Origin: Paenisporosarcina antarctica
GTDB taxonomy: Bacteria; Bacillota; Bacilli; Bacillales_A; Planococcaceae
DNA: 64,000 nt
Direction of reading: 5' to 3'
NCBI RefSeq assembly: GCF_004367585.1
Contig: NZ_CP038015.1
Coordinates: forward strand, 262,001 to 326,000
Positions 9,172-58,728 of this stretch are shown here, one piece after another (the stretch's first letter is position 1; each line of letters begins with the position of its first letter). The position numbers and the translations under genes were made by a program. The notes under the pieces were generated by a model. The model saw only the letters and a list, made by a program, of their open reading frames with translations, ran no database searches and was not told the DNA's origin.

Positions 9172-9429
9172 TGATTTGCGCTCCAGGCGGACGCTTTCCA
9201 CGGGGCGGACGGAGAGCCTCCTCAGGCCAACACGATGTTGGTCACAAAGGCGTTGTCACATGATGTGACGTTCTTAGCCTTTGTTCCACTTAGCGCTCCA
9301 ATACGGGGTCTCGCCTGTCCCGCTAATCCCGTAGGAAAGATATTGGACGAACTGTCATTCGTCCAATATCTTTGCGACGAGTAACCGCAGGAGCACATGC
9401 TTTTCCCGCCGCCTTCCGCTCCAATCAAG
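9172..9429 (+). repeat. Dispersed GC-rich intergenic repeat, copy 1
   Basis: About 258 bases of GC-rich DNA in an AT-rich setting. It begins GATTTGCGCTCCAGGCGG and ends in CGCCTTCCGCTCCAATCAAG. Inside, 9336-9373 is a perfect 16-bp hairpin (AAAGATATTGGACGAA and complement, 6-base loop) followed by CGACGAGTAACCGCAGGA. A second copy lies at 10342-10600 in the opposite overall orientation. No credible protein is encoded. It resembles the intergenic repeats common in Bacillaceae/Planococcaceae genomes, but I cannot name the family. Confidence 0.75.
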
Positions 9430-9595: not shown

Positions 9596-9750
9596 CGAGC
9601 GAAAGCTCAGTTGTAATTAGTAGGTGTCACGTTGTAATTATGGAAGGTGACGTTATAAAAATAGGCATCCACGTTGTAAAAATCGTGGTCCACTTTATAA
9701 TAGTTAAAATATGGAATTTAATTAGTCGATTATTCTTTCATTCTATAACT
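9596..9750 (+). repeat. 21-bp direct-repeat array, GTTGTAA family, locus A
   Basis: Five GTTGTAA-type cores start at 9610, 9631, 9652, 9673 and 9694: an exact 21-bp period. Most are preceded by CAC or GAC (consensus CACGTTGTAA); the rest of each unit varies. A small hairpin GAGC-gaaa-GCTC precedes the array and an AATAGTT...GGA...AT...TCGATTATT tail follows. Locus B at 18001-18165 has the same leader, number of units, period and tail. Confidence 0.8.
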
Positions 9751-15368: not shown

Positions 15369-15630
15369 GAATGTTCACCCTTTCGTGTTCGTCTTATTTT
15401 AGAGAAAAATCTATAATTGATTAGTCTTTTGTAATAGTTTAAACAATATTTATCATATCATAATTTCTGATACATAAAGACTTCTAAAGTTGTGAGGATA
15501 TTATAGCTCTGTTCATATTTTTTTTTATGGATCAACCATTTCAACTATCGAGAATTATTGCTAAAGAATGGTGTTTTAAATAGAGAATTTGGGAATACTA
15601 AAACAACCTATATATGACGGAGGAATACTC

Positions 15631-15795
15631 ATGTTCGATTCTAATAATAAGTATAAACAAGAGGATAAAACTAAGACAAAAATTGAAAATGAGAAGAAGA
15701 GCATCAAGCTATCTGCTAATGATGTGTCAGAGGAAAAAAGTGAGAATACGGAGACTGTTGTGTTACAAAACCGAATTAATACAGAAGGACTATAA
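15631..15795 (+). CDS. Small hydrophilic protein of unknown function
   Basis: 54 residues, starting MFDSNNKYKQEDK, very rich in Lys, Glu, Asn and Ser, with no cysteine, hydrophobic segment or recognisable domain; probably disordered or helical. The main support is a good ribosome site (GGAGGA eight bases before the ATG at 15631); the frame extends upstream to 15589 without a second site. Followed within 50 bases by a terminator hairpin. I do not recognise a family. Confidence 0.55.
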   Translation: MFDSNNKYKQEDKTKTKIENEKKSIKLSANDVSEEKSENTETVVLQNRINTEGL

Positions 15796-15840
15796 AAGTA
15801 TTCGTATTCGAGCAGCACTAGCCAAAACCAAACCAATTAG

Positions 15841-15876
15841 GCCCCTACACACTGCGTGTTTCGGGGTATTTTTGTG
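15841..15876 (+). terminator. Terminator ahead of 21-bp array
   Basis: CCCC-TACACAC-tgc-GTGTTTC-GGGG stem followed by TATTTTTG. A near copy (GCCCCTTACACTTCGTG...) stands at 58590-58620, also ahead of an array. Confidence 0.7.
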
Positions 15877-15886
15877 GGATAAATTG

Positions 15887-16012
15887 GGCGAAAGGGAATA
15901 AACTCTGCTTGAACGGGAATAAACGGGGTTTGAACGGGAATAAAGCGACTGTGGACAGGAATAAACACCTCGCGAACGGGAATATATCAAAATGAAAGGG
16001 AATAAACCCGTC
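15887..16012 (+). repeat. 21-bp direct-repeat array, GAACGGGAATAAA family, locus C
   Basis: Six units; the GGGAATA core starts at 15894, 15915, 15936, 15957, 15978 and 15998 (21-bp steps, last step 20). The core GAACGGGAATAAA is constant and the 8-base remainder varies. A T-GGGCGAAAGGG leader precedes it. Too short in repeat and spacer for CRISPR. The same core forms arrays at 41991-42115 and 58486-58728. Confidence 0.85.
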
Positions 16013-16190
16013 GAGCGCGCCTACTAGTAAACGTAGCTAATTCTTTGATCAAGTTAAAGATATTAAGATAATCGTAATTCACTCGAAGCTTATATAGCTC
16101 ATGGTGTATAATGCAACTGTGAGCAAGAATCATATCTACTGTTTGAATATCGTAATATAAAGAGACAAACATGAAAGCGAGTGAAAAAAT

Positions 16191-16910
16191 ATGGGGCGCA
16201 AATGGAATAATATTAAAGAAAAGAAAGCTTCGAAGGATTCAAATACTAGTCGTATTTATGCGAAATTCGGACGCGAAATTTATGTAGCAGCAAAACAAGG
16301 TGAACCGGATCCAGATTCAAATCGTGCATTAAAAATTGTACTAGAACGCGCAAAAACATATAGTGTTCCAAAAGCTATTGTGGATCGTGCAATTGAAAAA
16401 GCAAAAGGCGGCTCAGAAGAAAATTATGATGAATTGCGTTATGAAGGTTTTGGACCAAACGGCTCTATGGTAATCGTCGAAACACTGACAAACAACGTCA
16501 ATCGTACAGCATCAGATGTGCGTGCTGCATTTGGTAAAAATAGTGGGAATATGGGTGTAAGTGGATCAGTAGCTTACATGTTTGATGCGACTGCAGTCAT
16601 TGGCATGGAAGGGAAAACAGCAGATGAAGTTCTTGAACTTTTATTAGAAGCAGACGTGGACGTGCGAGACATTTTAGAAGAAGAAGAAGCGGTTATTGTG
16701 TACGCTGAACCCGATCAATTCCATGCGGTGCAAGAAGCATTCAAGAATGTTGGCATTATAGAATTTACAGTAGCTGAACTGACAATGCTAGCACAAAATG
16801 ACATTATACTCGATTCTGATGCACAAGTACAATTTGAGAAAATGATTGATGCCTTAGAGGATTTAGAAGACGTTCAACAAGTTTATCACAACGTTGATTT
16901 GGGCGAATAA
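16191..16910 (+). CDS. yeeN: YebC/YeeN-family protein
   Basis: 239-residue cytosolic protein of the YebC/PmpR family. The N-terminus [20 protein letters not shown] is the form seen in B. subtilis YeeN and differs from the MAGHSKW N-terminus of the second paralogue. Family stretches [31 protein letters not shown] and [10 protein letters not shown] are present. The family was long described as transcription regulators and more recently linked to relief of ribosome stalling at proline-rich sequences. The upstream 100 bases contain no clear AGGAGG; GAGTGAAAAAAT precedes the ATG. A strong terminator follows directly. Confidence 0.93.
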
Positions 16911-17104: not shown

Positions 17105-17245
17105 CCGAATATTCGGGGAATAATTTCCTAAGAAAGTGTTCCTTGCTTTCCGTGCCGCGGTCATTTGTCCACTGGTTGTCTTCCTTAAGCAACGTAAACC
17201 CTACCTTCTTTTACGTCCTTGCGACCCTATAGTCGCGCCAGTGTG
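17105..17245. ncRNA. Candidate structured RNA or element (three-way junction)
   Basis: No open frame. CACTGG (17170-17175) pairs with CCAGTG (17238-17243); inside are ACGTAAA/TTTACGT (17192-17198 with 17210-17216) and GCGAC/GTCGC (17221-17225 with 17232-17236). A 14-bp palindrome CCCGAATATTCGGG lies at 17108. The region is clearly more GC-rich than its surroundings. I compared it by memory with common riboswitches, 6S, SRP, RNase P and tmRNA and saw no match. Strand unknown; a transcript on the minus strand would end at the 17029 hairpin. Confidence 0.35.
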
Positions 17246-17531
17246 AATAAGTTTAATCAAAAACATCGAGTAGATGCCAGAATTTCAAATCTTACTTGCT
17301 ATCTTATCTTGTTAACTAGAGTATTATCACATGATTCTTTGTTTTTGTCAATAAACTTTCTAATATCCTTTTAATTATGTTAGTGAAAGAAGCTGCTTAT
17401 TTCTTCTTTACAATTACCCGTTACTGGTGACTACATATCACCAAACGGAATAAAACTCCGCTAATCCCTAGGTCCCTTAATATAAATTACATAAGATAAT
17501 AATAAATAATGAAAGAAAGGGGGACTTTACA

Positions 17532-18000: not shown

Positions 18001-18165
18001 CGAGCGATTGCTCAGTTGTAATTATTGGCTGTCACGTTGTAAATCTGGACGGTCACGTTGTAAATATAGACCTTCATGTTGTAAAAATCTCGATCCACGT
18101 TGTAATAGTTGAATTTTGGAAGATAATATCGATTATTATTTAATATTCATTAACTCAACGACTCT
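18001..18165 (+). repeat. 21-bp direct-repeat array, GTTGTAA family, locus B
   Basis: Five GTTGTAA cores start at 18015, 18036, 18057, 18078 and 18099: an exact 21-bp period, with consensus CACGTTGTAA. The leader hairpin GAGC-gatt-GCTC and the tail AATAGTT...GGA...ATATCGATTATT match locus A at 9596-9750. The variable part of each unit differs between loci. Same orientation as locus A. Confidence 0.8.
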
Positions 18166-41990: not shown

Positions 41991-42115
41991 GTGAAAGGGA
42001 ATAAAACGTGTGCGAACGGGAATAAATCAAATTAAACAAGAATAAACTGCGTTTGAACGAGAATAAACCAATTGTGAACAGGAATAAATCACTTTAAACG
42101 GGAATAAACAACTGT
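41991..42115 (+). repeat. 21-bp direct-repeat array, GAACGGGAATAAA family, locus D
   Basis: Six units; the core starts at 41997, 42018, 42038, 42059, 42080 and 42100, steps of 20-21 bp. Preceded by AAAAATAGGGTGAAAGGGAA as at other loci. The rest of the 41814-42314 interval has no gene. Confidence 0.83.
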
Positions 42116-48534: not shown

Positions 48535-48812
48535 ATTCCATACTTATTAAAATATGTTGATGAAGATACGCCTTATGGGTTTGAAATCTTTAGAGAGCTG
48601 ATGGTTGGTGAGAATCAGCGATTTCTACATAATGTAGCACTTTTGAATAGATGAGTTGAATCCTTATTTGTAAGCTCATTCGCTTCATGCACGTTAAGCA
48701 TGTTAACCAATGAGGCTACACTCTGTTAAAAAGGGTAGCAAAAAAGGGTGGTACCGCGTAAGTTACAAACTTTTCGCCCCTTACACTAGTAAGAGGAGGA
48801 AGGTTTTTTTGG
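48535..48812 (+). ncRNA. T-box riboswitch, serine (UCC) specifier
   Basis: tRNA-sensing leader of the serine operon. The T-box consensus AGGGTGGTACCGCG is at 48745-48758. Stem I distal elements (AGAGAGCTGATGG, then GTGAGAATCAGCG) are at about 48590-48625. The specifier region GAA-TCC at about 48658-48663 gives UCC, a serine codon, in agreement with the serine-biosynthesis genes downstream. A terminator, CCCCTTAC/GTAAGAGG then GGTTTTTTT, follows (48776-48811). Uncharged tRNA-Ser would favour the antiterminator. Confidence 0.9.
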
Positions 48813-58485: not shown

Positions 58486-58728
58486 TGGTTTGAACAGGAA
58501 TACAACAAAGTGAACAGAATAAACTCAGCCACCCTAGGCCATAACGCAGCTTACACTTTCAAATGGGTAGAGAAAATCAATCGAATTAGCCCCTTACACT
58601 TCGTGTTTTGGGGGTTTTTTGAAAGAAATAGGGTGAACGAGAATACAATATGTTGAATCGGAATAAATCAATTTGAACCGGAATAAAACTAAGTACGAAC
58701 TGGGGTAAACAAAATGAATTGAATAAAC
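58486..58728 (+). repeat. Decayed arrays, GAACGGGAATAAA family, loci E and F
   Basis: Two groups separated by a hairpin (58590-58620). E: cores at 58496 and 58516. F: cores at 58639, 58659, 58679, 58701 and about 58720, steps of 19-22 bp, with mutated cores (GAACGAGAATAC, GAATCGGAATAAA, GAACCGGAATAAA). The leader AAATAGGGTG recurs. Less regular than loci C and D, so older or relaxed. The remaining 58380-58913 interval has no gene. Confidence 0.65.
58590..58620 (+). terminator. Terminator-like hairpin between arrays E and F
   Basis: CCCCTTACAC-ttc-GTGTTTTGGGGG then TTTTTT; near copy of the hairpin at 15841. Confidence 0.65.

What the first reader, a model, noticed from the sequence alone, without database searches (positions are those of the whole stretch)
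15887..16012. Six-unit, 21-bp-phased GAACGGGAATAAA array (locus C)
Direct repeats with a constant 13-base core and variable 8-base filler, stepping 21 bp (15894, 15915, 15936, 15957, 15978, 15998). The step is about two helical turns, so the cores face the same side of DNA. The core is conserved while the filler is free, which points to protein binding or another DNA-level function, not to simple slippage. I know no named element with this core.
Basis: partly seen in the sequence, partly recalled or inferred. Interest (0 to 1): 0.75.

Follow-up and report, generated by a model that had tools for sequence, protein, structure and literature searches.

The report
Phased 21-bp arrays behind gene terminators
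Short DNA arrays of about six near-identical sites, spaced about two turns of the double helix apart, sit behind the stop signals of many genes in this bacterial group and use different 'spellings' in different species, which looks like an undescribed landing platform for an unknown DNA-binding protein.

Summary
The array is real: six units at 15890-16006, steps 21,21,21,21,20. A model finds 51 such elements, some partial, in this Paenisporosarcina-group genome. A full copy has six units of a 13-base core, GAAnnGGAWTAAA, plus 7-8 bases of filler. Units of one element agree 0.86 in core and 0.34 in filler (12 elements). With up to 1 mismatch, neighbouring cores are 20/21 bp or multiples apart in 191 of 192 cases, about 10.4 bp per turn. 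A terminator-like hairpin and T-tract stands within about 40 nt upstream of 23 of 46 elements, against 4.2% of random positions; relatives 14 of 23. Most run with the upstream gene; some lie behind tuf and five rRNA operons. Related genomes keep the architecture but change the core, once at the same yebC locus. Best reading: phased one-sided sites for an unidentified DNA-binding protein, acting as a boundary behind transcription units. Phasing, core/filler contrast, terminator enrichment and dialects are shown; protein and boundary role are inferred. Closest described kind: staphylococcal STAR elements.

The parts
15631..15795 (+). 54-aa upstream ORF, the gene whose 3' side carries the array; a similar ORF stands in front of yebC in several relatives
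   Evidence: Read by eye
15810..15889 (+). leader of the element: terminator-like hairpin (arms about 15842-15845 and 15863-15866), T-tract 15869-15873, and the constant prefix TGTGGGATAAATTGGGC
   Evidence: Aligned with 15 other leaders; hairpin before the T-tract scored -12.3 kcal/mol; the simple consensus scanner did not call it a terminator
15890..15902 (+). unit 1 core GAAAGGGAATAAA
15911..15923 (+). unit 2 core GAACGGGAATAAA
15932..15944 (+). unit 3 core GAACGGGAATAAA
15953..15965 (+). unit 4 core GGACAGGAATAAA
15974..15986 (+). unit 5 core GAACGGGAATATA, followed by the 7-base filler TCAAAAT that recurs at this index in many copies
15994..16006 (+). unit 6 core GAAAGGGAATAAA
16191..16910 (+). 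downstream gene, YebC/TACO1 family; the orthologous locus compared across the genus
   Evidence: Pfam PF01709 and PF20772; found in 9 of 9 genus genomes
41993..42108 (+). second family-A array in the window, six units, steps 21,20,21,21,20
58635..58709 (+). third family-A array, four units, steps 20,20,22, behind a hairpin and T-tract at about 58590-58620; degenerate units also at 58492-58525

Best explanation
Each element is a platform of about six direct-repeat binding sites for one (unidentified) sequence-specific DNA-binding protein. The sites are spaced two helical turns apart, so that several copies of the protein bind side by side on one face of the DNA. The platforms lie behind the 3' ends of transcription units, often right after the terminator, and act there as a protein-occupied boundary: most likely a roadblock or insulator against polymerase that reads through, or an anchor that separates a strongly transcribed unit from its neighbour. 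New platforms arise by copying of whole elements and by tandem duplication. The core drifts in step with the recognising protein, so lineages acquire dialects. Shown here: phasing, core/filler contrast, terminator enrichment, orientation, copying, dialects. Inferred: the protein, its cooperative binding, and the boundary function.
For: Spacing: 43 neighbouring steps of 20 bp and 136 of 21 bp, then multiples, in 269 kb; in ten G001 stretches 139 steps of 21, one of 22, five of 42. In 21-base units the filler carries 0.0-0.4 bits apart from its last base. Within one element core identity is 0.86 and filler 0.34 (180 and 120 unit pairs, 12 elements; in G006 0.75 and 0.34). Position: hairpin plus T-tract within about 40 nt upstream in 23 of 46 elements, 4.2% of 2000 random places, 8 of 51 on the opposite side; in relatives 14 of 23 (G004 7 of 9), control 4.05%. 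Orientation: upstream ORF co-directional in 38 of 51; six of the other 13 lie behind rRNA operons in the same direction. Dialects: in G006 core position 8 is T in 73% and position 10 is G in 64% of 44 units (A in 100% and T in 99% of 72 G000 units), while filler order is still related to G000 (permutation 1 of 2000; 26 of 2000 without the fifth filler). G001 has core AGTGTCCYAATG, 99 phased pairs there and none in 60 other genomes, including an eight-unit array at the yebC locus behind a hairpin and T-tract. At one locus with the same flanking genes G000, G004 and G008 all carry an array, and the G000 core differs from the other two.
Against: No protein was identified and no neighbour family recurs: of 63 neighbour proteins no Pfam family matches more than 2. 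Half of the scored elements (23 of 46) fail the terminator score, among them the copy behind tuf and five of the six behind rRNA operons. The passing copies are not independent: about 13 share one kind of leader and by eye nine have terminators of their own. Units were recognised by likeness to the core, which inflates core identity. Filler is not free in the 20-base units (up to 1.6 bits, TCAAAAT-like). Five of 51 elements run against the upstream gene, two of them weak matches. Seven of nine genus genomes show no GAACGGG-type array before yebC, so no single platform is essential. No transcription or binding was measured.
Confidence: 0.5

Rival explanations
1. A non-functional dispersed repeat (minisatellite-like or MITE-like): regularities come only from descent and slippage, and the terminator link comes from where copies happen to insert or survive.
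For: Whole elements are clearly copied: same-index fillers within G000 agree 0.51 against 0.37 for different index (66 element pairs), and 235-237 bp tandem duplications occur at several loci. Presence varies between species at yebC. Replacement by a new sub-family of copies could mimic the G006 dialect.
Against: Within one element fillers are nearly as different as random while cores stay alike; neutral units would diverge evenly. Spacing is kept while most filler sequence is not. G001 and G018 show the 21-bp step with unrelated cores.
Confidence: 0.22
2. An RNA-level element: read-through transcripts carry a purine-rich, unfolded array that an RNA-binding protein or nuclease recognises.
For: Arrays mostly run with the upstream gene and lie where read-through RNA would run; the array consensus has no fold.
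Against: RNA recognition gives no obvious reason for exact 20-21 base spacing with mostly random filler.
Confidence: 0.12
3. A DNA-mechanical element (phased bends, a gyrase- or nucleoid-protein wrapping segment), functionally like E. coli BIMEs (recalled) at operon ends.
For: The 10.5-bp harmonic of A+T exceeds the 21-bp and 7-bp harmonics in 10 of 13 families, without a shuffle control; arrays are about 115-117 bp and some lie behind tuf and rRNA operons.
Against: Wrapping does not need a 13-base core; filler A+T is nearly flat in 21-base units of family A. No curvature or gyrase calculation or measurement was made.
Confidence: 0.1
4. Short guide array, TIGR-Tas- or CRISPR-like, with the 7-8 base fillers as guides.
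For: Constant repeat with variable filler.
Against: 0 of 9 genus genomes have a Nop-domain protein over the cut-off, one sub-threshold match in G004; dozens of dispersed copies with inherited fillers next to unrelated genes.
Confidence: 0.02
5. Iteron-like decoys against plasmids, or an uptake-sequence-like dialect system.
For: Phased direct repeats of about 20 bp resemble plasmid iterons (recalled); a Psychrobacter plasmid has such units; dialects recall Neisseriaceae DUS (abstract).
Against: No BLAST match of the window array in 72,556 plasmid or 50,697 phage records, though BLAST sees short repeats poorly; DUS are not phased arrays as far as the abstract tells.
Confidence: 0.04

Closest known systems
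STAR elements of Staphylococcus (PMC3532100; outline, abstract and passages seen)
   Same: Interspersed intergenic direct repeats with a conserved 14-bp motif and locus-specific spacers; different genomic places in different species; units expand and contract; function unknown.
   Different: STAR motif is GC-rich T(G/A/T)TGTTG(G/T)GGCCC(C/A) with at least 40 bp between motifs; here 7-8 bp filler and a 20-21 bp step. The word 'terminator' does not occur in that paper's main text.
TAACTGA heptamer repeats of marine Beggiatoaceae (PMC4679880; passages seen)
   Same: Many short intergenic direct-repeat sets with a proposed but unknown binding factor.
   Different: In the BOGUAY genome most lie just upstream of start codons, with a 7-bp unit; here the arrays lie at gene 3' sides with 21-bp units.
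DNA uptake sequence dialects of Neisseriaceae (PMC3630211; outline and abstract seen)
   Same: A short motif that differs between related species but is conserved within each.
   Different: Thousands of copies per genome with a shown role in transformation; nothing comparable is known here.
BIME/REP elements of enterobacteria (recalled, no source read)
   Same: Dispersed elements at 3' ends of operons.
   Different: Palindromic units linked to RAYT transposases; here direct repeats with no fold in the array, and no Y1_Tnp match in 4 of 9 genus genomes, all four with arrays.
Plasmid iterons (recalled, no source read)
   Same: Direct repeats of about 20 bp, phased by two turns, bound by one protein.
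   Different: Replication origins next to a rep gene; here dispersed next to unrelated genes.

Membership tests
STAR elements | 14-bp GC-rich motif T(G/A/T)TGTTG(G/T)GGCCC(C/A) | tested here: not met
   Core is GAAnnGGAWTAAA; motif definition
STAR elements | at least 40 bp between motifs | tested here: not met
   7-8 bp filler, step 20-21
STAR elements | intergenic, motif conserved and spacers locus-specific | tested here: met
   the fifth filler is shared between many loci
REP/BIME with RAYT | palindromic unit | tested here: not met
   no consensus pair in the array; the leader has a hairpin
REP/BIME with RAYT | Y1_Tnp transposase in the same genome | tested here: not met
   no match in G001, G002, G004, G008, which have arrays; matches in 5 of 9 genomes including G000
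TIGR-Tas | Tas protein with Nop domain | tested here: not met
   0 of 9 genomes over the cut-off; one sub-threshold match in G004
TIGR-Tas | processed dual-guide RNAs | not testable with these tools
   needs RNA-seq
Known structured RNA (Rfam) | match to a covariance model | tested here: not met
   15700-16200 no match at E up to 5; the three window matches lie elsewhere
Plasmid iterons | array next to a replication initiator gene | tested here: not met
   no neighbour family recurs beyond 2 of 63 proteins (25 of 130 families shown)
Plasmid iterons | direct repeats phased by two helical turns | tested here: met
MITE | terminal inverted repeats and target-site duplication | not tested
   no systematic search for inverted ends or duplications was made

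The most novel reading that the evidence does not exclude
A bacterial boundary system not yet described: a family of fast-changing DNA-binding proteins and their helically phased arrays, placed behind terminators across Bacillales. Core dialects are rewritten genome-wide whenever the protein's specificity shifts, in the manner of eukaryotic satellite- or PRDM9-type co-evolution.
Probability: 0.25. Interest if true: 0.92.

Novelty: new variant of a known kind. Interest (0 to 1): 0.7.

Why it matters
If the arrays are protein platforms behind terminators, they would give bacteria a sequence-specific insulator layer that current annotation does not see. The dialects (same architecture, changed core, sometimes at the same locus) would be a natural series for studying co-evolution of a DNA-binding protein with its sites. 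A pull-down can test it directly, because the sites are multiplied and phased. Even if no protein is found, a repeat class with a fixed 21-bp step, enriched behind terminators in several genomes, needs an explanation.

Tried and rejected
RNA structure of the array: none, no Rfam match. Coding heptad (21 bp = 7 codons): the 20-bp steps shift the frame and the core GAACGGGAATAAA holds a stop in one frame; rejected by inspection. Stop-codon trap for translation: unlikely, since copies also lie behind rRNA operons. Replication-strand signal: the origin was not mapped; most copies point away from the contig start on both halves, but 3671312 does not, and it follows its upstream gene and terminator. 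A second such copy, 2482081, has an upstream ORF that overlaps it and may be spurious. RAYT mobility and TIGR-Tas. Plasmid or phage source: no match; the hits (E 0.4-0.8, 25-38 bases) are taken as chance. Linked gene: none recurs. G008/G002 empty-site comparison fell in a region of gene duplication and was not decisive. The consensus scanner found no terminator at 15400-16300, although folding scored one. The literature searches, of which I saw listings, showed no description of these arrays; preprints and most subscription papers are not in that library.

Full report
WHAT IS THERE. The six units lie at 15890-16006 on the + strand, with core starts 15890, 15911, 15932, 15953, 15974 and 15994. 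With up to 2 mismatches the window holds 17 core matches against 2.5 expected, and 0 of 100 shuffles reach 17. Two further family-A arrays lie at 41993-42108 and 58635-58709. A scan without a motif (chains of at least four 11-mers with up to 2 mismatches, periods 13 to 45 with a tolerance of 1) found three arrays in the window, all in bins 20-22: 15889, 41994 and 18015 (a different family, B). It missed the array at 58635. One block shuffle tested at 20-22 gave none.

GENOME-WIDE. With up to 1 mismatch the genome has 112 core matches (25 forward, 87 reverse) against 14 for the reversed pattern. A sequence-only model of 17 arrays finds 51 elements in the 3.97-Mb genome at E up to 0.01, some partial; the elements it was built from match by construction. 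In 269 kb of window and fetched stretches, chosen because they hold elements, all pairwise spacings up to 130 bp with up to 1 mismatch are 20 (43), 21 (136), 40-42, 61-64, 81-84, 102-105 and one of 122. Neighbouring steps up to 64 bp are in phase in 191 of 192 cases; with 2 mismatches 213 of 262, the rest scattered; with 3 mismatches chance matches dominate (386 of 1850 in phase), though 21 is the commonest step. Tandem duplicates are counted as they come. The mean single step of 20.8 bp is two turns at 10.4 bp.

ANATOMY. A full element has six units. Over 78 distinct 21-base units the conserved part is GAA..GGA.TAAA, and filler positions carry 0.1-0.4 bits apart from a preferred T or C just before the next core. 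The 32 distinct 20-base units differ: their 7-base filler is itself conserved (up to 1.6 bits, like TCAAAAT). In 12 chosen six-unit elements of G000, units of one element agree 0.86 in core and 0.34 in filler; in G006 0.75 and 0.34. Units were recognised by likeness to the core, which raises the core figure. Before the first core stands a prefix like TGTGGGAGAAATTGGGC, often with a hairpin and T-tract before it. Some copies carry a shared leader with its own hairpin (16 aligned, 14 of them from the 27 found); others sit behind clearly different terminators, as in G004. The array alone has no consensus fold. Leader-array units of 235-237 bp are tandemly repeated near 2540, 2781, 2782 and 3058 kb.

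POSITION. Of 51 elements, 46 had a usable 5' end (five whose model match begins late were dropped). Of these, 23 have a hairpin of -8 kcal/mol or better directly before a T-tract within about 40 nt upstream, against 4.2% of 2000 random positions, coding ones included; the opposite side gives 8 of 51. The 23 are not independent: about 13 have the shared kind of leader and by eye nine have different terminators. In relatives the score is passed by 14 of 23 elements (G004 7 of 9, G008 3 of 5, G006 4 of 7, G005 0 of 1, G002 0 of 1), control 4.05%. The upstream ORF runs with the element in 38 of 51; in 16 of those the downstream gene is convergent, where co-direction is automatic. Of the other 13, six lie behind five rRNA operons in the same direction, five about 300 bp and one about 820 bp beyond 5S, where the ORF caller saw spurious ORFs; only one of these six passes the terminator score. 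Two lie inside a tandem cluster with spurious ORFs. Five are true exceptions or weak matches (168685, 2489566, 2524084, 2524284, 3028491). One element follows tuf at 209 bp; it does not pass the terminator score. Of 73 neighbour ORFs I gave 63 to Pfam (those of 100 aa or more, less three judged spurious); no family matches more than two.

RELATIVES AND DIALECTS. The genus is Paenisporosarcina by inference: four G004 contig lengths equal those of Paenisporosarcina sp. OV554. Model matches occur in 9 of 9 genus genomes, weakly in G001 and G003. Within the genus the core changes. G000 also has GAAGCSGAWTAAA; G006 has GAACGGGTAGAAA; G002 and G008 have GAAARGGAATAAA-like cores. In 44 units of 8 G006 elements position 8 is T in 73% and position 10 G in 64%, while in 72 G000 units they are A in 100% and T in 99%; the other positions mostly keep their bases. 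Filler order in G006 is still related to G000 (observed 0.441, permuted 0.370, 1 of 2000; without the fifth filler 0.375, 0.336, 26 of 2000). For that I used 6 of 8 G006 elements (those with six units) and 10 of 12 G000 elements (near-duplicates left out). The signal is modest and rests mostly on TCAAAAT.

ORTHOLOGOUS LOCI. Upstream of yebC, G000 has the window array. By eye, G002, G003, G004, G005, G006, G007 and G008 have no GAACGGG-type array there (G006 has a short run of TTATCGSTCAAA-like units). G001 has eight units of AGTGTCCYAATG, all 21 bp apart, behind a hairpin and T-tract and after a similar prefix. That core has 99 phased pairs in G001 and none in the 60 other genomes searched. 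Between the same two convergent genes, G000 (522646), G004 and G008 all carry arrays; the G000 core is GAAGCSGAWTAAA, the other two GAAARGGAATAAA-like. A decayed G000 copy (3028491) corresponds to an intact G004 array.

BREADTH. The pattern of three phased GAWTAAA units occurs in 23 of 261 genomes of the order, in 9 of 19 genera, with 347 matches; the reversed control has 16 matches in 7 genomes (summed by hand). One of the 23 (G163) is a simple GAATAAA repeat, and G022 may be chance. In 250 genomes drawn from the class, 5 match, of which 2 lie outside the window's family (228 such genomes). In the listed matches different genera show different cores before GAATAAA. Of 13 families compared, all but Filobacillus (mostly 20) step mainly by 21 bp; Peribacillus also has 8 steps of 19. 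Most of these loci came from patterns or a model that presuppose 20-22 bp, so the period is independent evidence only for the window, the G001 yebC array and G018. G018, scanned blind over 100 kb, gave three chains at 21: two of GGCGATTATT units and one that may be a coding repeat; it also gave one chain near 36. 100 kb each of G010, G015 and G021 gave no 21-bp chain (G010 had one near 13 and one near 41).

MECHANISM. Most filler sequence is free but filler length is not; the core is held; cores face one side of the helix; the position is behind gene 3' ends, often right after terminators. This fits several copies of one protein bound side by side as a boundary (best explanation). The protein and its effect are inference. 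The parallel change of two core positions in G006 fits a shift in a recognising protein; replacement by a new sub-family of copies is an alternative that these data do not exclude. Rivals are scored in their own section.

KNOWN KINDS. STAR elements are closest in kind but fail motif and spacing. TIGR-Tas, RAYT-linked REP elements and Rfam families were tested and not met, and the array has no plasmid or phage match. Iterons, BIMEs and gyrase wrapping are comparisons recalled from memory. I found no description of these arrays in the searches.

Noticed in passing
window 9610-9710 and 18015-18125: A second dispersed element, family B: three to five units of RACGTTGTAAWWAT 21 bp apart, mostly behind a leader with a GAGCGATAGCTC-type hairpin; 36 exact phased pairs in the genome.
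   Followed up: partly
window 9227-9293 (-), 17179-17266 (+), 48548-48784 (+): Rfam matches: Bacillaceae-1 RNA, BsrC and a T-box leader.
   Followed up: no
window 15631-15795: Small 54-aa ORF upstream of yebC; similar ORFs stand at the same place in several genus relatives.
   Followed up: no
L409:3780-3860 (contig C2 of the window's genome): Degenerate three-unit array with core AGGTACAAAT at about 21 bp on the 75-kb second contig.
   Followed up: no
L407:6500-6830 (contig C2): A lipoprotein-like ORF with a repeated KAEVEAKA-type stretch, a coding repeat of 24 bp.
   Followed up: no
L229:2076-2163: Psychrobacter plasmid with about 20-bp GAGTAGAATAAACACAAAAT units, iteron-like.
   Followed up: no
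L184: A Flammeovirgaceae contig end with 21-bp units like TCGGAATAAAGGTCCGAGCCC, so a similar architecture may exist outside Bacillales.
   Followed up: no
L395:8400-8530 and L396:18430-18520 (G018): Arrays of GGCGATTATT at 21 bp; the first lies next to a hairpin terminator.
   Followed up: partly
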